Origin: Pseudarthrobacter oxydans
GTDB lineage: Bacteria; Actinomycetota; Actinomycetes; Actinomycetales; Micrococcaceae
Assembly (NCBI RefSeq): GCF_030812335.1
Contig: NZ_JAUSSN010000004.1
Location: forward strand, 124,001-188,000
Length of the DNA stretch: 64,000 nt
Direction of reading: 5' to 3'
Shown: positions 11,713-55,322 of the stretch, piece after piece
How the letters are laid out: each line of letters starts with the position of its first letter
Numbering within the stretch: the stretch's first letter is position 1
Notes under the pieces: generated by a model
Database searches by the model: none
What the model was told of the DNA's origin: nothing
Seen by the model: the letters and a program-made list of their open reading frames with translations, nothing else
Made by a program: the position numbers and the translations under genes

Positions 11713-12009
11713 ATGACGGAACGGGTGTGGCGCGTCAGTGCCGATGTGGCCTGTGTCCAGAGTCACGACGGCGGCCGGGTCGCCGTGCTGCATCTGGAGC
11801 AGGACGTGCCGGTCATCCTCGTGGGAACGGCCGCGTCCGTCTGGAACGCCCTGGACGGGACCAGGACCGAGACGGAGCTCATTGAGGAGCTTGCCCGTGC
11901 GTACGGTACCGATGCCTCCGTCATTAATGCTGATGTGATGGCCTTGATCCATTCGTTGAGCAACAGCCGAATGATCACTTTGTCTCCCCCTGATAAGGCT
12001 GCCAGCTAG
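11713..12009 (+). CDS. PqqD-like peptide-chaperone-family protein
   Basis: A 98-residue protein of the PqqD family: beta-rich N-terminal half (RVSADVACVQ, VAVLHLEQDVPVILVGTAASVWNALDG) and a helical C-terminal half (TETELIEELARAYG, DVMALIHSLSNSRMI). Family members bind precursor peptides (RiPP recognition element fold) or occur in polysaccharide loci of unclear role. The start at 11713 has GGAGG 6 bases upstream. The stop codon TAG overlaps the GTG start of the nucleotidyltransferase gene (TAGTG), so the two are translationally coupled. A second PqqD domain is fused to an HPr-kinase-like protein at 54162-55322. Confidence 0.8.
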   Translation: MTERVWRVSADVACVQSHDGGRVAVLHLEQDVPVILVGTAASVWNALDGTRTETELIEELARAYGTDASVINADVMALIHSLSNSRMITLSPPDKAAS

Positions 12010-12905
12010 TGGGCGCCGCCGAGACCCTGCAGCAGGACGAAGGCGTCCTCCTGGCCACAGCCCTCGTGGACCATGTCGCAGCATCAGCCGATCTCCCGGT
12101 GTTGTTCATCAAAGGCCCCGCGGCCACCATGATGGGGCTACGTGAACATCACGTCTCCGCGGACGTGGATGTCCTGGTCCGCCCGGAGGACCTAAACAGA
12201 ATGGTGGAACTCTTGGGCGCAAAAGGCTGGCTCGAACGGCCATCGGGCAGGGCGGTCGTCCGCGAGTACATGCACTCCCGGACCCTGTACCACCCGCACT
12301 GGAACTGCGACATCGACGTCCACGACCGATTTCCCGGGATGGAAGCCCCGGCCGGCAGTGCCTTTGACGCGCTGTGGCGCGACAGACAATTCCTGGTCAT
12401 GGCGGCCCGGAGCGTCCCCGTTCCTTCCCTCCCGGCAGCGGTGATCTTTCAGGCGCTCCACAGCCTCCGGGCCATGGACGATCCCCGTCATCAACGCGAG
12501 TATTCGGGCCTGTTCGAGCGGGTGGATGCGAGCCTGCATCATGACATCGTGGATCTCAGCGTGGAATTGCAGGCGACGGCGGCTCTGAAACCGTTCCTGG
12601 ACGGTCTGGGAACGACCGGTCTATTGATCCAGCAGGAAACCGTCAGCGAGGAGTGGCTCCACCGCACTTCTGTACAAGGTGTGGGGACGGCCTATCTGGT
12701 CGAGCTCATGGATAGTCCTTGGCTGGTCAAACCTCGAGTGCTCGCACGCGCGATCTTCCCCTCGCGGCAGAGCTTACGACACGACGACCTTTACCTTGAC
12801 GAGTCAATTAGCGGGATTCTCAGGGCCTATGTTTTGCGTTGGGCCCGCGGGCTGGCTAGCCTTCCAGCAGCAGCCCGGAGGACCCGAGCTACGCGGCGGC
12901 GGTAA
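12009..12905 (+). CDS. Nucleotidyltransferase-family protein (NTP_transf_5-like)
   Basis: A 298-residue protein with a minimal nucleotidyltransferase core near the N-terminus: FIKGPAATMMG (34-43) and SADVDVLVRPED (50-61), in which D52 and D54 are the likely metal ligands. The rest is helical. The same family sits beside HPr-kinase-like and PqqD-like genes in peptide-modifying and polysaccharide clusters. It begins with GTG inside the stop of the PqqD gene. Its substrate is unknown; it could transfer a nucleotide to a protein or a sugar, or act on a peptide. This context-based role is inference. Confidence 0.8.
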   Translation: MGAAETLQQDEGVLLATALVDHVAASADLPVLFIKGPAATMMGLREHHVSADVDVLVRPEDLNRMVELLGAKGWLERPSGRAVVREYMHSRTLYHPHWNCDIDVHDRFPGMEAPAGSAFDALWRDRQFLVMAARSVPVPSLPAAVIFQALHSLRAMDDPRHQREYSGLFERVDASLHHDIVDLSVELQATAALKPFLDGLGTTGLLIQQETVSEEWLHRTSVQGVGTAYLVELMDSPWLVKPRVLARAIFPSRQSLRHDDLYLDESISGILRAYVLRWARGLASLPAAARRTRATRRR

Positions 12906-12918
12906 CGCTGGATTCAAA

Positions 12919-13134
12919 TCACTTAGGGGAGCACCCTGGGCACCCTGAGCACGCTCCAGCCTCGGCTCTTCTTGGAATTACGGTCCTTGCTAAAGTGCTA
13001 ATGCCGATCGCAGGAAGCAATAAGAGACCGGCGGTGATGGATAAGCTGGTCCAACCCAAATTCTGGAGAATGTCACCGGCCCGACGCTCCGGCCGGGGAC
13101 CCCGCCGAGGACTGCTGTATACGAGATTCAACAT
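12919..13134 (-). CDS. Possible small membrane protein, weakly supported
   Basis: A 71-codon frame that begins at ATG 13134 on the minus strand, 32 bases downstream of the 17-bp motif. It has one hydrophobic stretch of about 20 residues (SITAGLLLLPAIGISTLA, near 32-50) between basic flanks, and three cysteines at the end. AAGG is the only ribosome-binding-like sequence and is too close to the start. It might be a real motif-controlled gene or chance coding. Confidence 0.25.
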   Translation of the reverse strand: MLNLVYSSPRRGPRPERRAGDILQNLGWTSLSITAGLLLLPAIGISTLARTVIPRRAEAGACSGCPGCSPK

Positions 13135-13165
13135 GCCTTGACACTAAGAGCCGACACACTCTGTA

Positions 13166-13182
13166 GCCCGAGTAGTAGGTAC
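13166..13182. promoter_or_regulatory. Candidate regulator site, copy 2 (17-bp repeat)
   Basis: GCCCGAGTAGTAGGTAC, identical over 17 bases to 6988-7004. It is followed by CCGAGTC and, about 18 bases on, GGTACTCG. It lies in a region between convergent genes, which is unusual for an operator unless an unannotated small transcript starts here. Confidence 0.45.
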
Positions 13183-13299
13183 CCGAGTCTGGACGACGCG
13201 GTACTCGCTGACTTCCTGTGTGACGTGCCTGCCCGCACACTGCGTTCGGCGCGGGCGCGGAGCGCTGTCGAACCACTTAGGTCCCTAACCGCGAAGGCT

Positions 13300-14616
13300 T
13301 TACTGGTACCCGTCCACGATGGCCGCGGCAATCTCCTTGTAGGCGCGCCGGGTTTCCGGACGCAACACATCGAGAGTGACCAGGTCACCGTCGGCCACAC
13401 CGCGGTCATGCGGTACGGCGATCAGCTGTCGGCAGATGCCGGAGAGGTGGTCCTCGATCGCGTCCTTGTCCACCCGCGAGGAGACCTCGTCCTTGTCGGT
13501 GATCACCACGATCGCGTTGCGCGCGAGGTCTTCATATCCGTGACCGGCCAGCCACTGCAGGGTGCTGCGGGCGCGCTTGGCGCCGCTGACGGCGTAGCCC
13601 GCCGCGATGATGAGGTTGTCGGCGGACTGCAGGATGCCGCTCATGGCGTTGTGGGTGACACCTGTCCCGCAGTCGGTCAGGGCCACAGAGTAATAGCCGG
13701 AGATGAGCTTGCGGATCCGCAGGTATTCCTCGGCGGTCAGCGAGTCCGAGACCTCGGGGTCCTGCTCACCAGCGATCAGGTGCAGCCGGCCGGCATGGTG
13801 CATGTACCGGGCCAGGGCGGTGAGCGAATGGATGGAGTCGACGTTCTTCAGCAGATCCGTGATGGTGCGCGGGCTCTGCTGCTGGTAGATGCCCTCGCCG
13901 AGGGCGCGCTCCACGAGGTCGCCGGAGTCCGGGTTCGCGTCGATCGCGCACGGCGGGTCCCCGCGGTATTCGGCCAGGGTCAGCCCGACGCCGACCGTTG
14001 TGGAGGTCTTGCCGATGCCGCCCTTGAGGCTCAGCACGGCGGTGTTGTAGCTGCCCTGGAGCTGGCGGGAGATGCGCCGGGCAAGGTCGTCTTCCTCGCG
14101 CTGCCGGGCGCTCGGGCCCAGGTTCAGGCCGCCGCCGGTCATCTTGTAGAGGGCGCCTCGGAAACCGCCGACGGGGCGGGGTTTCTGCTCGCGCACGAAG
14201 AGCCCGGGTGAGCTGATGAAATGCGGGGCGGGGGCGGCGAGGGCTGCTGCGCGGCTCCCGGCACGGCTGGATCGGGCCGGCATTGGCGGGACGGAGGGCG
14301 CAGCACCGGGGGCGGCTGGCACGTCCGCGTGCACAGGACCGGCAGCCGGCGGGACTGAGTCAATGGGAGGACGGGTATCAGCAGGGGCACGGGTCGGGGC
14401 CTGCGGGGCATCCGCTGCTGCTGCGGCTTCTGCCCAGGAGTTGCTGCGGACCGTACGCCCGGCTTCGCTGCCGACTTCGTTGGGCGTGATGATCGGCATG
14501 GTTCCTGTCCAGGCGTCGGACTCATCACCGCGGCGGCTGTAACGCCGGCGCCGGAGTTCCGGTTGCTCTGCGTCTACGTCGTCCTTGGCTGTGCTGTTGT
14601 CCACCGGTTCGGGCAT
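13300..14616 (-). CDS. EspI/MinD-like ATPase, orphan
   Basis: A 438-residue protein with a long disordered Pro/Ala-rich N-terminus (about 1-145), a conserved linker (RGALYKMTGGGLNLGPS, 153-169) typical of type VII secretion-associated EspI-like proteins, and a MinD/ParA-type ATPase domain with a deviant Walker A motif K198-GGIG-K203-T. The Walker A' acidic residue follows in CAIDANPDSGD. A GGGGGA box precedes the ATG at 14616. In mycobacteria relatives regulate ESX secretion, but no ESX gene (EccC, EsxA, PE/PPE) is present here. It may act in membrane positioning or secretion elsewhere in the genome. Confidence 0.82.
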   Translation of the reverse strand: MPEPVDNSTAKDDVDAEQPELRRRRYSRRGDESDAWTGTMPIITPNEVGSEAGRTVRSNSWAEAAAAADAPQAPTRAPADTRPPIDSVPPAAGPVHADVPAAPGAAPSVPPMPARSSRAGSRAAALAAPAPHFISSPGLFVREQKPRPVGGFRGALYKMTGGGLNLGPSARQREEDDLARRISRQLQGSYNTAVLSLKGGIGKTSTTVGVGLTLAEYRGDPPCAIDANPDSGDLVERALGEGIYQQQSPRTITDLLKNVDSIHSLTALARYMHHAGRLHLIAGEQDPEVSDSLTAEEYLRIRKLISGYYSVALTDCGTGVTHNAMSGILQSADNLIIAAGYAVSGAKRARSTLQWLAGHGYEDLARNAIVVITDKDEVSSRVDKDAIEDHLSGICRQLIAVPHDRGVADGDLVTLDVLRPETRRAYKEIAAAIVDGYQ

Positions 14617-14739
14617 AGTTGTCCCCCTGGGACTCACAGCGCAGGCCGCTGCGGTGCTCGTTTGAATTGTTCCAACAGCAATTCTAGGCGCAGACACCGT
14701 GGTCAGCGGACCATCGGGCATCCGAGCACGGTGGTCTGG

Positions 14740-15624
14740 CTAGTTCAGTCCTATCAGCAGCATCTGGTTTGTGCCGGGAATGCAGGTCTGCAGGATCGCC
14801 CGGGGGAAGCCCCCGAAGACGGCAGCGACGTTGTTCGTTGTGCCGCCCTGACTCACCTGTCCGCGGGCCGTTGCCGTATAGGTGCCGTAGCCGGCGATGA
14901 CCACGGTTTCGCCGACGCCGATCCCCGAGAATCGGGCCCACCCCCCGCAGAAGTCGTGTTCGGTGATGAACAGCGAATAGGCATCCGTGGGCGTGAAGTG
15001 GATGGGGCCGATGCATCTGTCCACCATGGCCTGGCCGCCCGAGCCCGCCACGAAGATAGTGCGCACGACTGGAACTGCCGGCGCGGTCAGCGCCGGGGCG
15101 GCACGGGCAGGAGCGGGGGCCAGCGCAGGACCGGGAACGGGGGGACCCGACAGCTTCAGTGTTTGGCCCGGATGGATAAGGGTGTAAGCGCCCAGCCCGT
15201 TGGCTTCAAGCATGTCGTAGACGTTGACGCCGAAGCGTGACGCGATGGCGCCGACGGTGTCTCCGGCAACCACGCGGTACTGGTTGGAATCTGCGTCGAA
15301 TCCGAGCGCTTCCGCGGGAGCTGCCGGTGGCGACTCAGGAGCTACCCCGCCGCCTGCCTCCGGGGGAGCTACCGGTGGAGGCTCAGAAGCTATAACTTGG
15401 ACGGCCGGGGACTCGGTCAATGAGCCCTGCACCGCCGGCGACGAAGTCCCCGGCGGTGCAGGGCTCGGGCTGGCTGTTGTAGAAACACCGGCAGGCGATT
15501 GAAGCGCAAAGGAGGCCGCCAGCATGCAGGCGAGCAGCAAAGGCCCCTTGGCGTTCAGTGATTTGGAGGCGTGTGTCGTCCTGCGATTGCCCGGGAGACC
15601 GTGCTCGTTCGGAACCATCTGCAT
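14740..15624 (-). CDS. Secreted LysM-domain protein
   Basis: A 294-residue protein with an N-terminal signal segment (about 25-45), a Pro/Ser-rich linker, one LysM peptidoglycan-binding domain (about 115-158, YRVVAGDT to HPGQTLKL), a second proline-rich linker, and a C-terminal domain (about 185-294). The last domain has three cysteines (DRCIG, FCGGW, LQTCIPG) and ends in a hydrophobic strand. The ILQTCIPG segment recalls the cysteine strand of sortases, but the histidine and arginine of a sortase were not found in a convincing place. It is probably a cell-wall protein of unknown activity. A 17-bp perfect inverted repeat lies inside the first linker (15422-15466). Confidence 0.8.
   Translation of the reverse strand: MQMVPNEHGLPGNRRTTHASKSLNAKGPLLLACMLAASFALQSPAGVSTTASPSPAPPGTSSPAVQGSLTESPAVQVIASEPPPVAPPEAGGGVAPESPPAAPAEALGFDADSNQYRVVAGDTVGAIASRFGVNVYDMLEANGLGAYTLIHPGQTLKLSGPPVPGPALAPAPARAAPALTAPAVPVVRTIFVAGSGGQAMVDRCIGPIHFTPTDAYSLFITEHDFCGGWARFSGIGVGETVVIAGYGTYTATARGQVSQGGTTNNVAAVFGGFPRAILQTCIPGTNQMLLIGLN
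15422..15466. repeat. Perfect inverted repeat inside the LysM gene
   Basis: GAGCCCTGCACCGCCGG (15422-15438) and its exact reverse complement (15450-15466) are separated by 11 bases. It encodes part of a Pro/Ala/Ser-rich linker, so it costs little in protein terms. It could form a strong mRNA hairpin or be a palindrome insertion. Confidence 0.85.
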
Positions 15625-15888
15625 CAGCCCGCTTCATGACCAGCGCCAACCGGGCCTGGACTTGAGCTGAGCTCAAGACTTCAAGGTGACTGCACGCTCT
15701 TCAAGATGCCGTGGCAGAGGCCTCGAACCCGGCACGAGATCCCGGGCAGCTCCGGACTTAGCCTGAGCGTACGAAGCGGAAACGCCTTTCACACGCGTAC
15801 CGGCTACCCGGAATTTTTGGACGAGCCACGTGGGTGCTCAGCGGTCTACGCGGTTGAGCTGCCGGGCGCGGCGGCACTGCTGCTGCTA
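15625..15888. other. Intergenic region, no gene seen
   Basis: About 260 bases between the LysM gene start and the small membrane gene end. No frame with a credible ribosome binding site was seen. It should hold the LysM promoter. Confidence 0.4.
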
Positions 15889-16005
15889 TCAGGGTGTCAG
15901 TGCCAGAACGACGACGACGAATGTCACGAGAGCGAGGAGCAGAAGGCCCACATACGCCCACCATTTGGGCCGGTTGCGGTGCGGGTTGATGTCAATGTAT
16001 GGCAA
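15889..16005 (-). CDS. 38-residue membrane protein, second of a tandem pair
   Basis: A frame starting at TTG (16005), three bases after the stop of the upstream small gene and in the same phase. The product is polar at first (LPYIDINPHRNRPKWW) and then almost entirely hydrophobic (about residues 17-36, AYVGLLLLALVTFVVVVLALT), so a single-pass membrane protein is likely. The aromatic WW at the membrane border is typical of real membrane proteins. The TTG start is not certain; no ATG is available in frame. It probably relies on translation of the upstream gene. Confidence 0.5.
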   Translation of the reverse strand: MPYIDINPHRNRPKWWAYVGLLLLALVTFVVVVLALTP

Positions 16006-16008
16006 AGC

Positions 16009-16143
16009 TCAGGGCACCTGTCGTTGAAGAACGGACGCTTGGCGTCTGCGTTTCAGGCGAAGGATCAGGAAAGAAAGGGCGGCAAGAAGCACAAGGCTTG
16101 CCGAGAGAATGCACAGGGCCAAGATATAGCCGGGCAAAGTCAC
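16009..16143 (-). CDS. 44-residue membrane protein, first of a tandem pair
   Basis: A GTG start at 16143 with AGGAGG 8 bases upstream, the strongest ribosome binding site in this stretch. The product begins TLPGYILALCILSASL, has one hydrophobic segment (about residues 5-29) and then a very basic tail (RLKRRRQAS), so the tail is likely cytoplasmic. Its architecture is that of small regulatory membrane proteins. The next small gene begins 3 bases after its stop. Function unknown. Confidence 0.6.
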   Translation of the reverse strand: MTLPGYILALCILSASLVLLAALSFLILRLKRRRQASVLQRQVP

Positions 16144-16306
16144 TGGTGAGACCTCCTGGGAACAGCGTCATCATTGACGCGCCTTGGGATCCCCATCCCC
16201 CGGGCGAGCTGAGCGCTAGCGGGTTTGGACCCTGGTTGCGGATCCTCCCCGAGGTTACTCACGGGTTACCTAAGTTGTCCACCGACGCGCCCAAGCTCTC
16301 CGCGGC

Positions 16307-17122
16307 TCAGTGGTGGGCGCGGGTCTCCTGCAGACGCTTGATGAACCAGCGGGACTGCTCCGGCCCATAGGGCAGGATCGGGATTGCTTTGGTGGCGTCG
16401 TCCGGAGTCTCCCTTGTCGCCTGGGTGGCCTGCCGCACCGCCGTGGTCATGGTGTTGGCCATGGTCTTGACGAACTGGTCGCTGCAGGGCTCGCCGTGTC
16501 CTGGAATCAGAAATTCGTACCGGTGGCGGAGGGCCGAGACATGCCGGAGGACGTCTGCCCATTCTTCGGGGTAGGAATCCTCGAAGGACGGGTGCGAGCC
16601 CTGCTCCACCAGGTCCCCGGCGAAGAGAGTGGTGGCCGTGCCGACCAGGACGTCGCCGTCGGTGTGTCCGTGGCCGAGGTAGAAGAGCGTGACGGTCTGG
16701 CCGCCGAGATCCACCAGCACGGGTTGGTCTTTCACGAGGGCGTTCGGGACAACGAGTTCGGTGTTGCTGCCCTCGCCTGCTGCCATTTCCGGCTCGTCGG
16801 CCCCGACGTGCCGGCGCTGAGTATCGCCGTTCTCGTCGATCTCCGCGGCGCAGTTCTCGTGCGCCCAGAACTCGGTCACTCCAGCATCGGCGAACACCGC
16901 GTTGCCGAAGAAGTGGTCATAGTGGGCGTGGGTATTCACGACGACGAGGGGCAACTGGGTCTTTTTCCGCACGGAGTCAAGGATCTCGCGCCCCTGCCGG
17001 GGTCCGCCGCCCGTGTCGATCACGAGGGCGCGTTCGGAACCGACGACCAGACCGGTGTTGAGCAGGGAACCTTGGGTGGTCAGGACGTAGTTGTCCGGGC
17101 CGACCTCGAGCCATCGTGGCAT
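16307..17122 (-). CDS. Metallo-beta-lactamase-fold hydrolase
   Basis: A 271-residue zinc hydrolase of the MBL superfamily. The signature THAHYDH (residues about 95-101) supplies the HxHxDH ligands, and further ligands are in GHGHTDGD, in FAGDLVEQG and in IPGHGEP. There is no signal peptide. It may act on a quorum or detoxification substrate as in glyoxalase-II or quinoprotein-related MBL proteins, but the sequence does not decide. A GGAGA box precedes the ATG. It appears to be a single-gene unit. Confidence 0.88.
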   Translation of the reverse strand: MPRWLEVGPDNYVLTTQGSLLNTGLVVGSERALVIDTGGGPRQGREILDSVRKKTQLPLVVVNTHAHYDHFFGNAVFADAGVTEFWAHENCAAEIDENGDTQRRHVGADEPEMAAGEGSNTELVVPNALVKDQPVLVDLGGQTVTLFYLGHGHTDGDVLVGTATTLFAGDLVEQGSHPSFEDSYPEEWADVLRHVSALRHRYEFLIPGHGEPCSDQFVKTMANTMTTAVRQATQATRETPDDATKAIPILPYGPEQSRWFIKRLQETRAHH

Positions 17123-33010: not shown

Positions 33011-34340
33011 GGCTCTTCAAGGTTTGTGGGGAATTGATTTCGTGTCGTAGCTAAAAAAGGGGCCCGTGGCCCTGCTGGGATGAGTGTGTCTAGCATTCAA
33101 CCAGGAACAGGACCACGAGCCTTGATTGAGCCTACCGGGGCAGCGGCCGACGCTGCCACCAGCATCTTCAACCTGCCCGGCTACACCGTCATCTCGGCCA
33201 CCGTTCTGGAGGACGGCCGGCGCCAGATCATCGTTGAAACGGACCAGCCGCCGGGCTGCCCGAGCTGCGGTGTCGTCGCGACGCGGCGGAAGGAACGGCG
33301 CTTCCAGCGGATCCGCGACATCCCGGTCGCAGGCGCCGTGGAGGTCCTCTGGTCCAAGTACCGCTGGCACTGCGAGGAACCCAAGTGTGCCCGGCTCTCG
33401 TTTTTCGAATCCACCGCCCAGGTCCCGCGCCGGGCCCGGTCCACCGGCCGGCTCCGGGACCACGTCGTTGACGCTGTCATCAATTCCGGCCGGGCCGTGT
33501 CCGAGACTGCCGCGGCGTTCGCGGTGTCCTGGTGGTTGGTCCGTGCCGCATTGACCGAAGCTTGTTTGCTCACGCAGCCCGAGGTGGATGAGCTCAGTCC
33601 GCGGATACTGGGCATCGACGAGCACCGGTTCCGGTCTGTGCGTTACTTCCGGGCCACTGACTCGGCATCTTGGATCCGGCATGAGCCGTGGATGACGACG
33701 ATCGTTGATCTGGACACCGGGCAGGTCCTGGGTGTGGTCGATGGCCGGGACCACAAGGGCGTCGGGGACTGGCTCTTCGCCCGGCCGCTTCAGTGGCGTC
33801 TGGGGGTGCAGGTCGTCGCGATCGACCCGTCGGCTGCGTTCCGGAAAGCGTTGAGGATGTGGCTGCCTCGCACCGCTGTCGCGGTCGATCATTTCCATCT
33901 GGTCTCCCTCGGCAACCAGGCCATGACTGAGGCCAGGCAGAACTTGTCCCAGCGGGTCAAGGGCCGTCGCGGCCGTGGCGTGGACAAGGCCTGGGCTCAT
34001 CGGATGCTGCTCCTGCGGGCCGGCGACGCGCTCTCCGAGAAGGCAGCTCACCGGCTGGCTGAGGTCTTCGCCGCCGACGACCCGACCGGCAAGCTCCAAG
34101 CCGTGTGGAAGGTCAAGGAGCAGCTCAGGGTGCTGCTGCGCACCAACTCCCTGGCCGACGCTGCCGCGGCGAAAGAGGACCTCAAAGTGCTGGTCGAGGA
34201 AGCCGGACGGCCGGAGACAAACAAGCTCTACCGCACGATCTGCCGGTGGTGGAACGAGATCGAAGTCCTCATCGTCACCGGCGCCACCACCGGGAAGGTC
34301 GAAGGCAACAACACCGGCATCAAACACATCAAAGGCAAAT
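33011..34340 (+). mobile_element. Right-truncated ISL3-family insertion sequence
   Basis: The left end begins GGCTCTTCAAGGTTTG at 33011, the usual GGCTCTT start of ISL3-type terminal repeats. The transposase gene follows 69 bases later. The matching right-end repeat is absent: unrelated sequence begins near 34335-34345 and leads into a tyrosine recombinase module. The right border given is approximate. Confidence 0.65.
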
Positions 34341-34411
34341 CAGTTAACCGGCCCTTGATGACCGGACACGCCGTGGATTTCCAGAAACTCCGGGTGCTGT
34401 CGTGCCGGTAG
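33080..34411 (+). pseudogene. ISL3-family transposase, C-terminus replaced
   Basis: A 443-codon frame. The N-terminal zinc-finger region has CPSCG (about 59-63) and a later CEEPKC pair, followed by a helix-turn-helix (GRAVSETAAAFAVSWWLV) and a DDE nuclease domain: GIDEHRFR, VDGRDHKG, then VAIDPSAAFRKAL, AVDHFHLV and KVEGNNTGIKHIK. After KHIK the usual aromatic FRN tail is missing and about 25 unrelated residues (GKSVNRPLMTGHAVDF) run to the stop, so the gene was truncated by the next element. Catalytic residues are present, but function is doubtful. Confidence 0.8.
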
Positions 34412-34434
34412 GAGACTGGAAACAGTCCTGCCGG
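34405..34434. repeat. Palindrome before the recombinase gene
   Basis: CCGGTAGGAGACTG (34405-34418) and CAGTCCTGCCGG (34423-34434) form an imperfect dyad just upstream of the tyrosine recombinase start. It could be a recombination or regulatory site of the incoming element. Confidence 0.5.
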
Positions 34435-34444
34435 AGGAGGACGA

Positions 34445-35489
34445 ATGGGACTGCTGGTTGCCAAGTCAGGAGACGGGCATATTCTTACGGGTGCCGCTGA
34501 CGCCACCGGGGAATTGGTCAACGGATTCCTGGCCCATTTGACGACTAGGACTTTCTCGCCTGCAACGCGCCGGGCGTATGCGTTCGACCTGTTGAACTTC
34601 CTGCGTTTTCTCATGGAGCGACGGCTCGAACTGGCGGATGTCGCCCCGACTGATCTGTTCGATTACCTCGATTGGCAGCAACTGCCGCAGAAGAGCTCCG
34701 GCGGCACCGTCGTCCGGCTCACCTCGCGCACAGGCGCAGCACCGGCGACGATGAACCGGCGGATTGCTGCAGTGCGGAGCCTGTACGACTACGCCGTGAT
34801 AGCCGGTGCTGTGAACGAGAACCCAGTCCCTGCGGCACGGCGTTCTTCAGGTTTCCGTGCCATGCGGCGCGGGCTGCTCGGGCACCTGGGCAAGGGCCGT
34901 GAGCGTGGCGGGGGCAAGCTGGTGCGTGAAGCGAAGAGGCTTCCATTTGCCCTTGATCCCGCGCAGGTGGCCGTTTTTATCGCCGATCTGCTGACCGCCC
35001 GTGATCGTTCGATGGCGCTGTTGATGCTGCTGGGAGGACTGCGCGCGTCAGAGGTACGACTGCTGCCGCTGGCCAACGTTGATTTTGGGCTGCGCAGGGT
35101 CAGGGTTACGGGCAAGGGCGGGAAGGAACGTGTTGTGCCGGTCGACCCGTCATTCTTCACGGAACTGGCGTCCTACCTGTCCGGTCGGCTGCAGTGCCGT
35201 TGAATGCTTTGTGGTGTTGCGCGGACCGACCACCGGCCATGCTTTGACCGAAGCCGGTCTGCGGCGGATCTTCCGCACCCACCGGCTGCGGGCAGGCACT
35301 CCGCTCGTCCGTCCGCACCGGCTGCGCCATACCTATGGAACGGAACTCGCCGCTGCCGGAATCGACCTGCTGGTGCTGCGCGACCTCATGGGCCACGCCA
35401 GTCCGGAGACGACCGCCGGCTATGTCCATCTGTCGGCAACAACTCTGGCCGAGGAGTACGCGGCCGCCAGATCACGATTGGAGTCATGA
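34445..35489 (+). pseudogene. Tyrosine recombinase, frameshifted
   Basis: Two overlapping frames together make one phage-integrase-type recombinase of about 347 codons. The first (34445-35203) has the N-terminal core-binding domain (FLAHLTTRTFSPATRRAYAFDL) and the first catalytic arginine in GGLRASEVRLLPL. It stops at 35201-35203. The second frame, in phase from about 35170, supplies HRLRHTYGTELAAAG and LMGHASPETTAGYVH, with the catalytic tyrosine. The shift lies between about 35165 and 35200. An AGGAGG box lies just upstream of the start. Its stop overlaps the start of a second recombinase fragment, as in recombinase-in-tandem elements. Confidence 0.8.
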
Positions 35490-44437: not shown

Positions 44438-44612
44438 GGAAAGTAAACGCCAAGTTAACGGTATGTAAAACAACTTGAGTCACTTTGGTCACTCGCGTTA
44501 TCAGTGCTATCGTCAGCAGGGACTTAACTAATGAGATTTCAACTGGCGGCCGCTGGGGGGCCGGAAATCTCCACATCGCATGACACTCGTATACACGGTC
44601 TCAGGGGGACAC

Positions 44613-45206
44613 ATGAAGAAAACACTTGCGGCGCTCACGCTCGCCGGCTCTATCGCTCTCATTGGTGCAGTTCCGGCCATGGCAACCAACGCGCCGTACC
44701 CGGCACCGCCCGCAAACTCTGCCGTTTCTGACGGCACGGTTGGCCCGGGCGAGCGATTCGTCTTCCGCGGCAACGGCTTCCGGGCCGGCGAAGGCCTCGT
44801 CATCATCGTCACGCCCGGCCGGCCGTCAGCAGCCGGCGCAAGCGTCGCAGGCCGTGGCATGACCGTGACCGGAAAGATCACTCTTCCGCTGGCTCCGCAG
44901 AGCTTCTCCGCCAAAGCAGACAGCAAGGGCGCATTCTCCTACCCGCTCACCATCAGCGAGACCGGCGTCTACACCATCACCGCGACCGGTCAGGAGTCTG
45001 GGGTTACCTCCAGCACGAGCATCACCGTGCAGGGTGCCGCAGTGGGTGCCAACCTTGCGACCACGGGTAACGGAACCGCTCTCGCCAACACCGGCGCTGA
45101 TTCCAACCTGATGATTTGGTCGCTGGTAGGCGCAGGCGCCCTGGCTGCCGGCGTTACCTCCGTTGTGGTGGTTCGCCGCCGCGCGAAGGCTGACGTCACC
45201 GTCTAA
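44613..45206 (+). CDS. Surface protein with tandem LAXTG sorting motifs
   Basis: A 197-residue secreted wall protein. A signal peptide (MKKTLAALTLAGSIALIGA to AMA) is cleaved near residue 24. A beta-rich domain covers about 40-140 (GERFVFRGNGFRAGEGLVI, TGVYTITATGQESG), as in Ig-like surface modules. Then two class E-type sorting motifs follow in series, LATTG (148-152) and LANTG (157-161), a hydrophobic segment (about 166-187) and a basic tail (RRRAK). The start at 44613 has AGGGGGA upstream. It is a likely substrate of the class E sortase at 1324-2124. A hairpin terminator follows at 45231. Confidence 0.85.
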   Translation: MKKTLAALTLAGSIALIGAVPAMATNAPYPAPPANSAVSDGTVGPGERFVFRGNGFRAGEGLVIIVTPGRPSAAGASVAGRGMTVTGKITLPLAPQSFSAKADSKGAFSYPLTISETGVYTITATGQESGVTSSTSITVQGAAVGANLATTGNGTALANTGADSNLMIWSLVGAGALAAGVTSVVVVRRRAKADVTV

Positions 45207-45230
45207 GCAACAGCCAAGAAGCAACTTACG

Positions 45231-45268: not shown

Positions 45269-45294
45269 GCGTTGAATACTTTCTTGAGGAGTAC

Positions 45295-46612: not shown

Positions 46613-46709
46613 AAACGAACCTTACAAGCACCCCCGGAGAAACAAAATCCCATTAAGCAAAGACAGGTACCGAGAAAATGCGGTCCCGCGTAGCCCATTT
46701 CGGGTGCTG

Positions 46710-47489: not shown

Positions 47490-47528
47490 GGGGCTCCTGA
47501 GGTCGGGGCGGGAAGCAGGTTTGGACGG

Positions 47529-48761: not shown

Positions 48762-48776
48762 GGGTGCACCTGTTCC

Positions 48777-49337: not shown

Positions 49338-49342
49338 GGTGG

Positions 49343-50260
49343 TTACCAGCTGGCTCCGGGGTACTCGCGGGCGAGCACCTGCATTTCGGCGAGGAGGTAG
49401 CCGAGGTGTTCGGAGTGCAGTCCCCTGCGTCCGCCGCCGGGGGCGGGCTGGACCTTGGGAACCTCCAGTTCGGCCGCGGCGAGGACCTCGCCGGTGAGCC
49501 GGTCGAAGTCGGCGCGCAGGCTGGAGGGCTCGACGGCGGCACCGGACGCACTGAGGCGTGCGGTGAGCTCGTCATCGCGGAACAGCTCGTCGACGTAGGG
49601 CCAGATGACCTTGAAGGCGTGGATCATCTTCTCGCGGGACTCGTCCGTGCCCTGGGCCAGGCGCAGCACCCACTGGGCGCTGTGGTCGCGGTGGTAATCC
49701 ACTTCCTTGACGGCCTTGGCGGCAATGCCGGCCAGGGTGGCGTCTGTGGACTCGGTCAGCCGGCGGTAGAGCTCGAACTGGTAATAGCTGACGACGAACT
49801 GGCGGGCGATGGTGACGGCGAAGTCGCCATTCGGGAGTTCGAAGATCTCAACGGAACGGAACTCGGGCTCGCGGCGGAAGTACGCGAGGTCATCCTCGCT
49901 CCGGTCGTCGAGTCCGCCAGCGTAGCTGAGGAAGGACCGGGCGTGGCCCAGCTGGTCCAGGGCAATGTTGCCGAGGGCGATGTCTTCCTCGAGCTCCGGG
50001 GCGCGGGAGATCCAGTGTCCCAGGCGCTGGGCGAGGACCAGGGCGTCATCGCCAAGGCGCAGGGCGAACTCGGCGACGTCCTCGCTCGGCTTGGCGGTGC
50101 CGCGGCTGACGGCCAGGGCGATGTCCTCGGGGCGGAGGGCATTGCCGGGGGTGATACGGGTGGCGCTGGCCGTGGCCTCGCCGCTGTTGCCGGAGCCTTT
50201 GACGCCGACGGAGATGTCGCCGTGGCCGCCGGTTTCTGCTGTTTCGGGTGACGTGCTCAC
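49343..50260 (-). CDS. paaC: Phenylacetyl-CoA epoxidase subunit PaaC
   Basis: A 305-residue ferritin-like structural subunit of the epoxidase that binds PaaA. The first 60 residues are a disordered extension; the core has the pattern ALRLGDDALVLAQRLGHWISRAPELEEDIALGNIALDQLGHARSFLSYAGGLD and VKEVDYHRDHSAQWVLRLAQGTDESREKM. The catalytic diiron centre belongs to PaaA. The start overlaps the paaB stop by four bases (ATGA). Confidence 0.92.
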   Translation of the reverse strand: MSTSPETAETGGHGDISVGVKGSGNSGEATASATRITPGNALRPEDIALAVSRGTAKPSEDVAEFALRLGDDALVLAQRLGHWISRAPELEEDIALGNIALDQLGHARSFLSYAGGLDDRSEDDLAYFRREPEFRSVEIFELPNGDFAVTIARQFVVSYYQFELYRRLTESTDATLAGIAAKAVKEVDYHRDHSAQWVLRLAQGTDESREKMIHAFKVIWPYVDELFRDDELTARLSASGAAVEPSSLRADFDRLTGEVLAAAELEVPKVQPAPGGGRRGLHSEHLGYLLAEMQVLAREYPGASW

Positions 50261-50558
50261 AGGTGCTTCACGCCCTCGCTCTTGGTGTAATACGTTGCGT
50301 GCCGGTAGTCCTTGCCCTGGGGCGACTCGAAGAATGAGCCCTTAGCGTCCGGATCGCTGGAGGCGATGGCGTCCGCCGGGACCACCCAGATGGACACGCC
50401 CTCGTTGCGGCGGGTGTAGAGGTCCCGGGCGTTGCGCAGGGCCATGGCGGCGTCCGGCGCGTGTAGGGAGCCGGCGTGGACGTGGGAGAGACCGCGGCTG
50501 GAGCGGACGAAGACTTCCCAGATGGGCCAGACGTTACCTGCATGCGGTTCGGGGGTGG

Positions 50559-50562
<4 letters not shown>
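50257..50562 (-). CDS. paaB: Phenylacetyl-CoA epoxidase subunit PaaB
   Basis: A 101-residue small subunit with the standard pattern: [55 protein letters not shown]. It bridges PaaA-PaaC dimers and is a member of the operon. The ATG overlaps the stop of paaA (ATGA), and its own stop overlaps the paaC start. Confidence 0.94.
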
Positions 50563-51590
<1,028 letters not shown>

Positions 51591-51621
51591 GGTTGCTCCT
51601 ATGCATTTCCGATAAATAATT

Positions 51622-51635
51622 ACCGACCGTTCGTT
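51622..51635. promoter_or_regulatory. PaaR-like operator
   Basis: ACCGACCGTTCGTT: ACCGA and TCGTT form a dyad with one mismatch around a CGTT-type centre, resembling TetR-family PaaR operators (ACCGACCGnTCGGT-like). It lies 32-45 bases upstream of paaA and could overlap its promoter. No paaR gene is in the window. Confidence 0.6.
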
Positions 51636-51721
51636 CAGGATATGCGGAAGGCGGGAGATGCGTCAAGCACCGGCGCGATCTGCGGCCCGTTGGGACAGAT
51701 CACCGGTGGTAGCTTGAACTC

Positions 51722-52438
51722 GTGAAGATCAGCGCCGGCAAGAAGCTACCCCTTTGGGCCACCGTGGTCCGGAACATGCTGATCGCCCTGGTGGCCGTGT
51801 CCCTGGTGCAGGGGTTCCTGGTGAAGGTGTACCGGATCCCGTCCGGGTCGATGGAGCCGACCCTGCGGGGGTCCGCGGACGGTGGGGACAGAATCCTGGT
51901 CAATAGGCTTGCCTATTTTGGTTCCGGGCCGGGTAACGGCGACATAGTGGTGTTCACGCGGCCGGACAGTTGGCAGGCCGAATCTGCGGTGCCCCGCAGC
52001 GGCGGGGTCGCGGGGCTGGCCCGATCCTTCGGCGACGTGACCGGGATTGGACCCTCCAACGACCGATTCATGGTGAAGCGGGTGGTTGCCACCGGCGGCC
52101 AGACCATTAGCTGCTGCGCTGACGACGGCAAACTGCGCGTCGACGGCCAGCCGGTCGAGGAGCCCTATATTTTCGAGGATCTGCCGTTTGAGGCAGGCAG
52201 CCTCGACTGCCAGACCAGCCCCCGGTCGCTCCGGTGCGTTCCTTCGTTCACGGTCCCTGAGGGCGAACTGGTGGTGCTGGGCGACCACCGTTCCAACTCG
52301 GTGGATTCCGTCATTGCGTGCCGGACGCCTGTTATTGACTCCGCTGGTGAGTGCGTAAGGACGATCCCGTCCTCGGCCGTCGTCGGGCAGGTGTCGGGCA
52401 GGTTCTGGCCTCTGAACCGTGCCGGCGGGGTGGGCTGA
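51722..52438 (+). CDS. lepB: Signal peptidase I
   Basis: A 238-residue membrane peptidase that removes Sec signal peptides. One N-terminal transmembrane segment (about 14-34) leads to the catalytic serine S43 in PSGSMEPTL and lysine K119 in MVKRVVATGG; GDHRSNSVDS is the further conserved box. It starts at GTG. It lies between the paa operon and the second kinase gene. Typical actinobacterial length. It could process local envelope proteins, but its role is general. Confidence 0.92.
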   Translation: MKISAGKKLPLWATVVRNMLIALVAVSLVQGFLVKVYRIPSGSMEPTLRGSADGGDRILVNRLAYFGSGPGNGDIVVFTRPDSWQAESAVPRSGGVAGLARSFGDVTGIGPSNDRFMVKRVVATGGQTISCCADDGKLRVDGQPVEEPYIFEDLPFEAGSLDCQTSPRSLRCVPSFTVPEGELVVLGDHRSNSVDSVIACRTPVIDSAGECVRTIPSSAVVGQVSGRFWPLNRAGGVG

Positions 52439-52454
52439 CCTCACCGACAAACGA

Positions 52455-52490
52455 ATATCCCCTCGGAGCGAGTTTGCTCCGAGGGGATAT
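52455..52490. terminator. Strong bidirectional hairpin terminator
   Basis: ATATCCCCTCGGAGC (52455-52469) pairs perfectly with GCTCCGAGGGGATAT (52476-52490) around a 6-base loop. It lies between the convergent lepB and Wzz/BY-kinase genes. Confidence 0.92.
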
Positions 52491-52499
52491 CTTCAGTGG

Positions 52500-54077
52500 T
52501 CAGTCAAACGATGTCCGGCTTCGCGCCGGCAACCGCGACGGTGGACGCGCGGGCGACTCGGCGCTTTGGTCGTAGACGGGTTCGGGTTCCAGGTAGTCCC
52601 GCGAAGATCCGACGGACACCGGTTCGGGCTGGGATTCGTGGGACTGATACGCGGTGTAGTACCGGTAAGAACCGGCGCCGGTTGTGGGCACACGGTTGAG
52701 GATGGTGCCGAGGATGTTGCCGTTCACCCGGTTGAGGTTGCCGAGGGACTTTCCCAGTTCCTCATCGGTGGTTTTTCCGGCCCTGATGACTACAATTGCT
52801 CCGTCGGCAATGCGCGTGAGTACGGCGGCGTCCGTGACGGGGAGCAGCGGCGGGGCGTCGACCAGCACAATGGCGTCCTGGGCGAGTGTCCTCAGCAGGG
52901 TCTTCATGGCCTGCGACCCCAACAATTCGCTGGGATTCGGCGGGATCCGGCCGGATCCGAGTACCCGAAGGTTGGGCATTGCGCTCCATTCCTGCAGAAC
53001 GTCCTCCAGCTCAGCGTGGCCACTCAGGACGTCGGTGACACCGACACCGGGGACGAGGTTGAAGACATCGACCAGGGTGGGGCGGCGCAGATCGCCGTCG
53101 ACGACCACAACGTTCTCGCCGGCGGCGGCCATGGTGACGGCCAGGTTGGCAGTCACTGTCGACTTGCCTTCCGCGGGAACAGAGCTGGTCACCACGATGA
53201 TGCGCGGGGGATTGTCGACGTCGACGTACTGAAGGTTTGTCCGGAGTTCCCGCAAGGCTTCGGTGATGGCATGCGATCCCTCGCCTGCCGCGATCGGACT
53301 GAAGCCGTCGTCCAGCACTTTACTCTTCCCGTCCAGGCGGTGGTCCACGGGGAGCGTTCCCAGTACCGGAATCCCGAAACGGCGTTCGATCGCAGTGGCG
53401 CTGCGGAGCCGGCGGTCGAGATGGTGTCGGAGCATTGCATAGAGGATTCCGAGAGCCAGCCCTGCCAGCGCTCCGATCGCGAGGGTGAGCTTTACGTTCG
53501 GGGAGGTGGGCGCCGTCGGCAGTGGGGCTTCGCCCAATGCAACCACGCGGATTACTGGAACGGGGACGACATCCGAGCCTTCAACGGCAGGGATGCTTTC
53601 CATCTCGTTGACTTGCGCGGCCAGACCCCTGACCCAGGCATCCGCGACGCGTTGCGCGGTGGCGGGATCCGTCGACGTGGCCGTGACCGCAATCTGGGCG
53701 CTTTCCTTTGGCAGCGTCACAGAGATTGACCCCAGCAGGGCGTCCGGCGATGTGGAGAGGCCCAGGTCCGTCACGACGCGTTCCGCAACGAGCCTGGACT
53801 TGGCCACCGACTCGTACTTTGTGGCCTTGGTTTGCGCCAGGTTCTCGCTCATGAGCGAAAGACTGAGGTTGTCCGAACCGCCGGCCACGACGATCCCACT
53901 GGACTGCGCGGAATAGATCTTCGGCTGCAAAAGGGTCCAGCAGAAGGCCAGCACGGTCAGGGCCAGCGTAAAGGCGAGAATGCCCTTCCACCGGGCCCGG
54001 GCGATGCGCAGGTAGTCCTCCAGCGCAAGCCCTGCCGCAGTCTGCCCGTTGTTGTCGGCCGTTTCAAAACCAGTCAC
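52500..54077 (-). CDS. Wzz domain fused to bacterial tyrosine kinase (copy 2)
   Basis: A 525-residue relative of the protein at 25766-27283. Wzz transmembrane segments flank an external loop (about 32-55 and 200-220); the kinase has Walker A SSVPAEGKSTVTA, Walker A' VVVDGDLRRP and Walker B IVLVDAPP. The tyrosine-rich tail carries YRYYTAYQ and then DYLEPEPVYD. The GTG start has GGGGGAGAGG upstream; a longer frame begins with MWVVGARHGG but lacks a better site. It could regulate the same polysaccharide or a different one, and may be counteracted by the phosphatase at 56260. Confidence 0.9.
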   Translation of the reverse strand: MTGFETADNNGQTAAGLALEDYLRIARARWKGILAFTLALTVLAFCWTLLQPKIYSAQSSGIVVAGGSDNLSLSLMSENLAQTKATKYESVAKSRLVAERVVTDLGLSTSPDALLGSISVTLPKESAQIAVTATSTDPATAQRVADAWVRGLAAQVNEMESIPAVEGSDVVPVPVIRVVALGEAPLPTAPTSPNVKLTLAIGALAGLALGILYAMLRHHLDRRLRSATAIERRFGIPVLGTLPVDHRLDGKSKVLDDGFSPIAAGEGSHAITEALRELRTNLQYVDVDNPPRIIVVTSSVPAEGKSTVTANLAVTMAAAGENVVVVDGDLRRPTLVDVFNLVPGVGVTDVLSGHAELEDVLQEWSAMPNLRVLGSGRIPPNPSELLGSQAMKTLLRTLAQDAIVLVDAPPLLPVTDAAVLTRIADGAIVVIRAGKTTDEELGKSLGNLNRVNGNILGTILNRVPTTGAGSYRYYTAYQSHESQPEPVSVGSSRDYLEPEPVYDQSAESPARPPSRLPARSRTSFD

Positions 54078-54161
54078 GCTTAGGTCCTCTCCCCCGTGCC
54101 TGGCCCCAACGACCCACACGAAAATTTACTGTACGGTACGGTGACCGCGTTGCTGTGCATA

Positions 54162-55322
54162 TTAACCCCGCAGGAGTAATCCCTGGTCCACGAGGCTGTC
54201 CACAGCCGAATCCAGCAGCGCTTCATAGCCTTCAGGCAGCCCGTGCACGGCCTCGATCTGGCCCGCCAAACTCTGCATAGAGACAGGGCGCCGGGCGGAC
54301 TGCCAGATTATGGGTCCGATGCCGCTGAGCCTGATGAGCTCGGTTTCGGTGAGGACCAGAAGGTCCTCACCGATTTCCACCGCGTCAACGGTCGCGGCCC
54401 TCTGCAGCCAGCCTGCGGGAATGGGTGAGCGATCAGTTTTCGCTTCCGATTCCGCTACGGCGGGTGACCATTCTTCGGCACCCTCCGACGGTCTTGCCGG
54501 ACCCGTAAGGAAGAGCGGCGCCAGGCTGTCCTTCAGATCAGCCGCTTCTGAATAGCTGATGCGGAACACCCCGCCCACGCTGTCAATCAGGCGGCAGAGC
54601 GATTGCAGCGGTTGGACCACGGCGGCCTGGGAGGACGTGTCCGGAATGAGCGCCAGCACTGCGTCCACCAAAGGGACCGGCTCAATGACGGGCAGTTGGT
54701 AGTCACCGTCGGCAACCCGGTCGAGCAGCGCAATGGCCGTGATGCGGGGATTGTCGGGCGCGATCTTTAGGCCGAGTTCGTCCGGGCCCACCTGTAGTTT
54801 GGCGGCACCGGGCGCTAGCTGCTTTATGGACAACGGCTTCGGGTACGGCAAAACCGTCCCATCTTCCCGGATCGCTACCGTCTCGTCTGTTATGTAGCCG
54901 AAAGTCCGAGCGAGCTGCGAGGACGCTGTGGTCTTGCCAGTGCCGGATTTCGCAACCAGGGCAATGACTGCGCCGCCGGAATCCGCGACCCCGCAGGCGT
55001 GGAGCATCGTCAGCTCGCCGGCTCGTTCCAGGATGGCTGCGATGGTGACTTCCGAAGTCACAGCTTCAGCCAAACCCTCAAAGGTGTCCGAGCCGATGTG
55101 CCGCACGCCAGCGGCCGGTAGCGTCGAGTCGAAATGGAGGGATGCCGTGAAGGGATGGGCCGATACGCCGGGCTCGGTTTGCGTTGTGGTTCGCGGATCC
55201 GCGAGGCATCGGCTCCAGGCCTGGACCATTGATTTCTGCTGGTCAGCGGATACGGCCGCCCCCCACTCAACGGTGAAGCTGGTACCCAACACATTGAGGT
55301 TCAAATCGCCGGAGGCCCTCAA
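54162..55322 (-). CDS. HPr-kinase-like protein fused to a PqqD domain
   Basis: A 386-residue protein in which an HPr serine kinase/phosphorylase-like domain (about 75-270) has a P-loop ALVAKSGTGKTTAS (121-134) and ITDETVAI (144-151), where the usual DD/DE pair lies. The C-terminal 80 residues (about 307-386: DAVEIGEDLLVLTETELIRLSG, IIWQSARRPVSMQSLAGQIEAVHG) resemble PqqD domains. Such kinases act on peptides or proteins in other clusters; the substrate here is unknown. It starts with TTG, weakly ribosome-bound, and is downstream of a Tat-signal protein gene. The separate PqqD and nucleotidyltransferase genes are at 11.7-12.9 kb. Confidence 0.78.
   Translation of the reverse strand: MRASGDLNLNVLGTSFTVEWGAAVSADQQKSMVQAWSRCLADPRTTTQTEPGVSAHPFTASLHFDSTLPAAGVRHIGSDTFEGLAEAVTSEVTIAAILERAGELTMLHACGVADSGGAVIALVAKSGTGKTTASSQLARTFGYITDETVAIREDGTVLPYPKPLSIKQLAPGAAKLQVGPDELGLKIAPDNPRITAIALLDRVADGDYQLPVIEPVPLVDAVLALIPDTSSQAAVVQPLQSLCRLIDSVGGVFRISYSEAADLKDSLAPLFLTGPARPSEGAEEWSPAVAESEAKTDRSPIPAGWLQRAATVDAVEIGEDLLVLTETELIRLSGIGPIIWQSARRPVSMQSLAGQIEAVHGLPEGYEALLDSAVDSLVDQGLLLRG

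What the first reader, a model, noticed from the sequence alone, without database searches (positions are those of the whole stretch)
11713..55322. PqqD, nucleotidyltransferase and HPrK-PqqD fusion at opposite ends of one polysaccharide locus
Seen: a coupled PqqD-like/nucleotidyltransferase pair at 11.7-12.9 kb (TAGTG overlap) and, 41 kb away, an HPr-kinase-like protein with its own C-terminal PqqD domain (54162-55322) next to a Tat-signal protein. Known: HPrK-like kinases, PqqD proteins and such nucleotidyltransferases travel together in some lasso-peptide clusters and in the so-called HPr-rel systems near exopolysaccharide genes, where their job is not settled. Inference: they may form one modification system with two PqqD recognition domains, acting on a peptide, protein or sugar linked to the polysaccharide. 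The in-cis fusion and the split across both ends are unusual.
Basis: partly seen in the sequence, partly recalled or inferred. Interest (0 to 1): 0.72.

Follow-up and report, generated by a model that had tools for sequence, protein, structure and literature searches.

The report
Kinase system reading Tat export signals
In an Arthrobacter-like genome and its relatives, a kinase fused to a peptide-recognition domain and a partner nucleotidyltransferase occur in the same genomes as, and often right beside, exported proteins that share one rigid export signal, which the enzymes are predicted to read so that they would likely phosphorylate, and perhaps glycosylate, those proteins before they leave the cell.

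Summary
In detail: a PqqD/nucleotidyltransferase pair at 11.7-12.9 kb and an HprK-fold kinase with a C-terminal PqqD domain at 54.2-55.3 kb. Of 245 Micrococcaceae genomes, all 67 with the nucleotidyltransferase also match the HprK-PqqD kinase (70 do), and in some relatives the genes adjoin or overlap, so this is one system. Its signal belongs to a class with fixed spacing (RR-x7-W-x-x-P-x8-P-x4-S/T) that tracks the kinase: 67 both, 5 signal only, 3 kinase only, 170 neither; repeated in other families and in one genus outside the order. Some loci carry 3-7 such proteins in a row; their mature parts are unrelated. W-x-x-P-x-[IVL] matches, by position, the leader motif that PqqD-type RREs bind in phosphorylated lasso peptides. 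Best reading: the Tat signal doubles as an RRE leader; the kinase phosphorylates the exported protein near its new N-terminus and the nucleotidyltransferase modifies the phosphate, beside a polysaccharide locus. Substrate, site and chemistry are inferred, not shown. The kit is known from Bacillota LPP peptides; its use on Tat-exported proteins appears new.

The parts
11713..12009 (+). stand-alone PqqD-like (RRE) protein, 98 aa
   Evidence: PF05402 45.1 bits, cut-off 23.4; a profile of 11 stand-alone PqqDs plus the window's fusion C-terminus hits lasso RREs TbiB1 5v1u (E 1.7e-11) and 9x90 (E 6.3e-11)
12009..12905 (+). nucleotidyltransferase-fold protein (NTP_transf_5), 298 aa; D52, D54 and D103 kept
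   Evidence: PF14907 40.0 bits, cut-off 31.2; D54, D103, H105 invariant and D52 at least 90% in 51 sequences; model pLDDT 89.9, folds nearest MenT1, ANT(2''), and further down FKRP
54162..55322 (-). HprK-fold kinase with C-terminal PqqD/RRE domain, 386 aa; H108, P-loop G127/G129/K130/T132, D146, E147 invariant in 67 sequences
   Evidence: alignment; model; folds
54162..54404 (-). C-terminal PqqD/RRE domain, residues 307-386
55497..56036 (-). Tat-signal protein, 179 aa, likely substrate; the only protein of this signal class found in the own genome
   Evidence: 1 match in G000 in each of two searches; no Pfam or NCBIfam match
55911..55991 (-). signal module R16-R17 ... W25-S-V-P28-V-I30 ... P37 ... 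S42 of the Tat protein
   Evidence: fixed spacing over 61 family signals; same positions as the lasso leader motif YxxPxL at -17 to -12 (PMC10368454 passage) if S42 is +1
52500..54119 (-). Wzc/CpsD-type BY-kinase and chain-length protein, next after the HprK-PqqD gene on the same strand
   Evidence: TIGR01007 169.7 bits, cut-off 108.05; a Wzc-type match within 6 kb of the kinase in 66 of 80 named loci
51722..52438 (+). signal peptidase I, possible leader peptidase
   Evidence: PF10502 105.9 bits; relatives within 6 kb of the kinase in 27 of 80 named loci
56260..56868 (+). low-molecular-weight tyrosine phosphatase (Wzb-like) beside the Tat gene
   Evidence: PF01451 75.5 bits

Best explanation
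The PqqD/nucleotidyltransferase pair and the HprK-PqqD fusion are two ends of one system that likely modifies a class of Tat-signal surface proteins, whose signal peptide is predicted to double as the leader that the PqqD (RRE) domains bind. Shown here: the enzymes and this signal class occur in the same genomes, often side by side, and the signal is rigid (RR at -9/-8, W at 0, P at +3, P at +12, S/T at +17 in the family set) while the protein behind it is free to vary. Inferred, in order: (1) the RRE in the kinase grips W-x-x-P-x-[IVL] in the cytoplasm; (2) the HprK domain phosphorylates a serine just after the signal, most likely the conserved Ser/Thr at W+17, as BsfK and LppK do at Ser3 of their peptides; (3) the PqqD-nucleotidyltransferase pair uses the same leader and adds a hexose or nucleotidyl group to the phosphate, as reported for PsmN; (4) the folded, tagged protein leaves through Tat and a signal peptidase removes the leader; (5) beside Wzx, Wzy and Wzc, the tag ties the protein to the exopolysaccharide. 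Steps 1 and 2 are the better supported; 3 to 5 are speculative.
For: Co-occurrence: 67/5/3/170 (both/signal only/kinase only/neither) of 245 Micrococcaceae genomes; 17/2/7/157 of 183 further genomes of the order; 4/0/1/185 of 190 further genomes of the class, the four and the one all in one genus. In the own genus signal and nucleotidyltransferase agree in 18 of 18 genomes. Linkage: 50 of 80 named loci found by the kinase alone carry the signal class within 6 kb (56 signals listed in 1.0 Mb; many of these loci are from close relatives); in five family-f9 loci the kinase is followed by 3-7 signal-class proteins in the same direction, with nucleotidyltransferase and PqqD ahead of it and, in the two read gene by gene, Wzc between. 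Leader-like pattern: in 45 homologues median identity is 92% in the signal and 27% in the mature part, signal higher in 990 of 990 pairs; no Pfam or NCBIfam family matches more than 2 of 103 such proteins. Register: W(-17), P(-14), [IVL](-12) equals YxxPxL at -17 to -12 (PMC10368454 passage); Ser/Thr at +17 in 61 of 61 family signals and in 45 of 53 found with a profile that ends at +12. Chemistry of relatives: LppK and BsfK phosphorylate Ser3, and the RRE BsfB1 speeds it (PMC13381572 section 7; PMC10368454 passages); PsmN adds hexoses to phospho-Ser (review PMC9266682, passages). RRE groove: at the place of the aspartate that anchors the leader tyrosine in LppB, 66 of 67 kinase C-termini have no Asp, as a Trp leader would allow.
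Against: No modification, binding or export was tested. In BsfA, Y(-17)A and L(-12)A did not affect phosphorylation (PMC10368454), and deleting lppN changed nothing visible (PMC13381572), so motif use and nucleotidyltransferase chemistry are open. W-x-x-P lies in the hydrophobic core of a signal peptide, where other constraints act. Some genomes are discordant: G061, G074, G077, G083, G174, G315, G340 have the signal without a detected kinase; G120, G124, G198 and seven order-level genomes plus G555 the reverse, although two of the seven, G384 and G400, hold signals below threshold. In many genomes kinase and signal proteins are far apart, and 30 of 80 named loci have no signal within reach. 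Four of 19 stand-alone PqqDs keep the Tyr-anchoring Asp, the window's own by eye among them; the groove comparison depends on my alignment, and neighbouring columns do hold Asp. My control for Ser at +1 of ordinary Tat signals failed. Genomes are related, so co-occurrence counts overstate independence; some kinase matches cover the kinase part only.
Confidence: 0.66

Rival explanations
1. The signal-class proteins are ordinary biofilm-matrix proteins co-expressed with an exopolysaccharide; their special signal is read by a dedicated signal peptidase, and the HprK/nucleotidyltransferase system acts on something else in the polysaccharide pathway.
For: A signal peptidase I relative lies within 6 kb of the kinase in 27 of 80 named loci and a Wzc-type match in 66 of 80; the few matches of mature proteins include Ig-like, TIG and RCC1-like domains.
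Against: Does not explain why the signal class was absent from all 198 genomes of the class sample without a strong kinase match, nor the W-x-x-P-x-[IVL] match to a known RRE ligand in register.
Confidence: 0.17
2. A classical RiPP pathway (lasso or LPP type) with a short precursor peptide that I did not find.
For: The same enzyme kit makes phosphorylated lasso peptides and LPPs (PMC13381572 sections 6 and 7).
Against: A search for conserved ORFs of 18-140 aa within 2.5 kb of kinase and nucleotidyltransferase found PqqD itself in 14 genomes and no other cluster in more than 4.
Confidence: 0.08
3. An HPr-rel-A type regulator: the kinase phosphorylates Wzc, a glycosyltransferase or another protein to tune polysaccharide synthesis.
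For: A Wzc-type match within 6 kb in 66 of 80 named loci and HprK_rel_A matches at E <= 0.01 in 61 of 67 members.
Against: The window protein misses the NCBIfam cut-off by far (27.3 vs 200 bits); a regulator would not need RRE domains or rows of proteins with one leader.
Confidence: 0.07

Closest known systems
Linear polyphosphorylated peptides (LPP) of Bacillota, lpp gene cluster (PMC13381572)
   Same: Discrete RRE, HprK-like kinase, uncharacterised NTP transferase and a signal-peptidase-like enzyme inside capsular polysaccharide loci; precursors with a conserved N-terminus and highly variable C-terminus; aromatic-x-x-P motif 18 (LPP) or 17 (here) residues before the modified or conserved serine.
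   Different: Here the leader is a twin-arginine signal peptide with W-x-x-P, the likely substrates are mostly 140-500 aa, the RRE is often fused to the kinase, export would be by Tat instead of an MsbA-like ABC transporter, and the hosts are Actinomycetes; the paper calls LPP restricted to Bacillota (passage).
Phosphorylated and phosphoglycosylated lasso peptides (paeninodin, pseudomycoidin, bsf)
   Same: HprK-type kinase, RRE and nucleotidyltransferase (PsmN, BsfN); [Y/W]xxPx[L/V/I/F/A] leader motif.
   Different: No small precursor peptide was found beside the enzymes; B2 peptidase and cyclase were not searched for; the conserved serine follows the leader and is not C-terminal as in paeninodin.
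HPr-rel-A system (TIGR04352/TIGR04353)
   Different: The window proteins score far below both curated cut-offs (27.3 vs 200; 15.8 vs 35 bits).
Dedicated sorting signals such as lipobox, LPXTG/sortase, PEP-CTERM/exosortase (recalled, from no call)
   Same: One short rigid signal on many unrelated exported proteins, found mainly where its cognate enzyme is.
   Different: The signal is N-terminal, Tat-type, and the putative enzyme is a cytoplasmic kinase with an RRE.

Membership tests
PqqD / RRE (PF05402) | PF05402 profile score over cut-off for the 98-aa protein | tested here: met
   45.1 vs 23.4 bits
PqqD / RRE (PF05402) | PqqD fold and homology at the C-terminus of the 386-aa protein | tested here: met
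   model; profile match to 9x8z; hhalign 96.8%; the single sequence alone has no Pfam hit
HprK-like kinase | HprK/PEPCK fold with intact P-loop and catalytic His/Asp | tested here: met
NTP_transf_5 (PF14907) | Pfam score over cut-off and active-site carboxylates | tested here: met
   40.0 vs 31.2 bits; D52, D54, D103
HPr-rel-A system | TIGR04352 kinase over cut-off | tested here: not met
   27.3 vs 200 bits
HPr-rel-A system | TIGR04353 PqqD over cut-off | tested here: not met
   15.8 vs 35 bits for the stand-alone PqqD
LPP peptides (Bacillota) | RRE, HprK and NTP transferase genes inside a polysaccharide locus | tested here: met
LPP peptides (Bacillota) | archaeal/SipW-type signal peptidase | tested here: not met
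   window peptidase is bacterial type I (TIGR02227 95.6 bits, cut-off 47; archaeal TIGR02228 17.7 vs 51.85)
LPP peptides (Bacillota) | precursor leader YxxPxVLxHQxIxFETxxS | tested here: not met
   the candidate's leader is a Tat signal with WxxPxI
LPP peptides (Bacillota) | serine phosphorylated by the kinase | not testable with these tools
   needs mass spectrometry
LPP peptides (Bacillota) | MsbA-like ABC transporter | not tested
   no search for it was made
Lasso peptides | B2 peptidase and macrolactam cyclase | not tested
   no profile search made

The most novel reading that the evidence does not exclude
A new protein-modification and surface-attachment pathway of Actinomycetes: a Tat signal peptide that is at the same time a RiPP-type leader. 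RRE domains bind it, an HprK-type kinase phosphorylates the serine that becomes the mature N-terminus, a nucleotidyltransferase caps the phosphate with a sugar, and the tagged folded protein is exported by Tat and joined to the exopolysaccharide, a functional counterpart of sortase or exosortase anchoring.
Probability: 0.3. Interest if true: 0.93.

Novelty: new variant of a known kind. Interest (0 to 1): 0.82.

Why it matters
HprK, PqqD and nucleotidyltransferase genes beside polysaccharide loci have had no settled job. This work gives them a concrete, testable substrate class, recognisable by a 27-residue signature, and suggests that RRE-guided chemistry, known for small peptides, is also used on exported proteins. 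If right, it predicts the modification site to the residue, names the proteins to look at in each of many genomes, and may explain how surface proteins that by a crude scan lack C-terminal anchors (1 LPXTG-like, 0 C-terminal membrane segments of 113) are held in the matrix.

Tried and rejected
Small precursor peptide: ORFs of 18-140 aa within 2.5 kb of kinase and nucleotidyltransferase, compared between genomes; PqqD recurred in 14 genomes, no other cluster in more than 4. Rejected as the main reading, not excluded genome-wide.

Ser at the mature N-terminus compared with ordinary Tat signals: the script placed the cleavage site too early (it called P or other residues in the signal class itself) and the control set (28) was mostly not Tat; the test showed no difference (39 of 149 against 5 of 28) and is uninformative, not used.

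Structural search for the PqqD part alone: PEPCK and HprK filled the lists, and no structure jobs remained; the domain rests on sequence profiles and the modelled secondary structure. No RRE-signal complex was modelled.

Solved-structure search with the nucleotidyltransferase profile: no meaningful match.

Rows dropped before counts: in the family set 17 genomes with weak kinase matches (18-34 bits, most over the P-loop region only) were counted as lacking the kinase; in the order set G266 and G277 (43-48 bits) and in the class set G441 and G458 (68-70 bits) likewise; none of these four has the signal. The split of the order and class sets into new and already seen genomes follows the handle numbers and kinship column. 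From the 62 family signals one (L065, 19.7 bits) was left out; one row of the 61-row profile A4 (L137) is a misplaced stretch (16% identity), relocated for the count. In the order set 53 of 54 signals reach +17. Of 113 signal-class proteins 103 were given to the family scans. The 45 proteins are the first 45 of those among 74 (the window's own included) that passed length filters, and the search that found them favours shared signals.
Full report
Observation. The window is G000:C4:124001-188000 of a 4.6-Mb genome; named relatives of the fusion are Arthrobacter and Pseudarthrobacter. The PqqD/nucleotidyltransferase pair (11713-12905) and the 386-aa HprK-like protein (54162-55322) are as described. 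The C-terminal PqqD domain, invisible to Pfam in the window's own copy, is supported by a confident model (pLDDT 93.3), by the family profile matching the RRE LppB (9x8z, E 1.6e-6), by hhalign against stand-alone PqqDs (96.8%; controls 0.2% and 0.3%) and by PF05402 hits in 19 of 67 members. The kinase part has the HprK/PEPCK fold with invariant His108, P-loop, Asp146 and Glu147. The nucleotidyltransferase keeps its carboxylates and resembles MenT1 and ANT(2''), and less closely FKRP.

One system. In 245 Micrococcaceae genomes the kinase query matches in 70 (best match 78 bits or more) and the nucleotidyltransferase in 67, all 67 shared. Some of these matches cover only part of the query. The three exceptions are G067 (82% complete), G179 (kinase in pieces) and G198; a profile search found no nucleotidyltransferase in them either. 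Distances range from 45 bases to 1.6 Mb; 5 of 67 lie within 5 kb, 18 within 20 kb, 31 within 50 kb, 49 on one contig. By my gene calls kinase and nucleotidyltransferase overlap by 4 bases in L065, and a stand-alone PqqD overlaps the kinase gene by 4 bases in L066, L099 and L101. In Pseudarthrobacter and many Arthrobacter loci the order is signal protein, PqqD, HprK-PqqD, Wzc, nucleotidyltransferase, all in one direction (L264-L278, L280-L283). So the two ends of the window locus look like a spread-out version of one gene set.

The missing piece. A Tat-signal protein lies beside the kinase in the window and in many relatives, although most mature parts did not cluster together. A profile of ten such N-termini (A3) hits 72 of 245 genomes at E <= 1e-6: 67 of the 70 kinase genomes and 5 others. 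Within the own genus the signal occurs in exactly the 6 of 18 genomes that have the nucleotidyltransferase; G198, which has the kinase without the nucleotidyltransferase, also lacks the signal. Profiles of kinase and nucleotidyltransferase found no intact system in the five signal-only genomes, only a 62-residue nucleotidyltransferase piece in G061.

Anatomy of the signal. 61 family signals share RR at -9/-8, W at 0, P at +3, [IVLM] at +5, P at +12 and S (59) or T (2) at +17 without gaps; their recovery with A3 favours that form. A profile cut at +12 (A4), which cannot favour +17, found further signals in other families: 45 of 53 have S/T at +17 and 52 of 53 have S/T within +16 to +18. In 74 homologues of the window protein (itself included) W+17 is S in 73 and P+12 is present in 74; in 45 of them the median identity is 92% in the signal and 27% behind it. 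That is the pattern of a leader, not of an ordinary signal peptide, though the search favours shared signals.

Outside the family. In 183 further genomes of the order: 17 both, 2 signal only, 7 kinase only, 157 neither; in 190 further genomes of the class: 4, 0, 1, 185, all five positives in one genus (thresholds and dropped weak hits under Tried and rejected). Two of the seven, G384 and G400, do hold related signals below threshold: G384 has two W-x-x-P forms near kinase genes, one with a longer gap after RR; G400 has forms with L or I in place of W at the same spacing. In five family-f9 loci (L244-L248) nucleotidyltransferase and PqqD come first, then the kinase (its PqqD part in a separate frame in L244, L246 and L247), then 3 to 7 signal-class proteins in a row; Wzc lies between in the two loci read gene by gene (L244, L245, by eye). 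Among 80 named loci collected by the kinase alone (Arthrobacter, Pseudarthrobacter, Sinomonas, Rathayibacter, Herbiconiux, Microbacterium, Nocardioides, Knoellia and others; the best 80 of 196) 50 carry the signal class within 6 kb, 66 a Wzc-type match, 47 a PqqD match, 41 the nucleotidyltransferase and 27 a signal peptidase.

Mechanism. In phosphorylated lasso peptides and in the LPP peptides of Bacillota, an RRE of PqqD type binds [Y/W]xxPx[L/V/I/F/A] in the leader and an HprK-type kinase phosphorylates a serine (PMC13381572: outline with abstract, sections 6 and 7 read, other parts as passages; PMC10368454: passages). The lasso motif spans -17 to -12. Counting the conserved serine of the Tat signal as +1, W, P and [IVL] fall on -17, -14 and -12, the same register. 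LppK and BsfK modify Ser3, 18 and 19 residues after the aromatic; the conserved Ser/Thr here is 17 after W. In LppB an aspartate fixes the leader tyrosine; at the aligned place 66 of 67 kinase C-termini lack Asp, as a Trp leader would allow, but stand-alone PqqDs vary (8 Q, 4 D, 3 E, 2 H, 1 S, 1 G of 19) and the register of that column is my alignment. PsmN, a nucleotidyltransferase, adds hexoses to the phosphoserine of pseudomycoidin (reviews PMC9266682 and PMC8498205, passages; the original paper is not held), while deletion of lppN had no visible effect. Hence the proposal: Tat preproteins are bound by the RRE in the cytoplasm, phosphorylated next to the leader, modified on the phosphate, exported folded, and cut. 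The link to the polysaccharide (LytR-CpsA-Psr, Wzx, Wzy and Wzc in the window; NeuB-type or flippase-bearing glycan clusters near the nucleotidyltransferase in relatives) is inference from position.

What is against it. No binding, modification or export was tested; Tyr-17 and Leu-12 of BsfA were dispensable for phosphorylation; discordant genomes exist; genomes are not independent; 30 of 80 named loci lack the signal within reach; the control for +1 serine failed.

Known or new. The enzyme kit and its place in polysaccharide loci are known (LPP, May 2026). Not found in print, within the listings of an open-access library (one search lists 10 of 191 papers) and by the words Tat, exported and Arthrobacter in the LPP paper (0 occurrences): a Tat signal acting as RRE leader, or this system in Actinomycetes acting on exported proteins. 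I therefore call it a new variant of a known kind.

Noticed in passing
G000:C22 (locus L104): A second HprK-like protein (370 aa, matched to the kinase query only over residues 81-167) with a metallophosphatase-like protein, a glycosyltransferase and a flippase by eye on a 4.8-kb contig of the own genome; similar weak matches occur in several same-genus genomes.
   Followed up: partly
window 33080-35203: ISL3 transposase and a short XerC-like recombinase inside the polysaccharide locus, a possible cause of rearrangement.
   Followed up: no
L245 7104-8567: An HprK-type protein whose N-terminus looks by eye like a low-molecular-weight phosphatase; the window has such a phosphatase beside the Tat gene.
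   Followed up: no
P0192: A nucleotidyltransferase of this family followed by RCC1 repeats in one chain; one of the 103 scanned signal-class proteins also matches an RCC1-like domain. May be a fusion or an assembly artefact.
   Followed up: no
L377 1139-3466 (G400): Tat signals with L or I in place of W but the same spacing of P, P and S.
   Followed up: partly
L070, L072-L076: A regulator-like protein (family 20, AraC-like by eye) encoded beside the Tat protein in several genomes, near the kinase in most of them.
   Followed up: no
L084 9020-10342, P0187: Nucleotidyltransferase and PqqD fused in one chain.
   Followed up: partly
window 44580-45206: Secreted protein with a weak C-terminal LPXTG-type anchor match in the same locus.
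   Followed up: no
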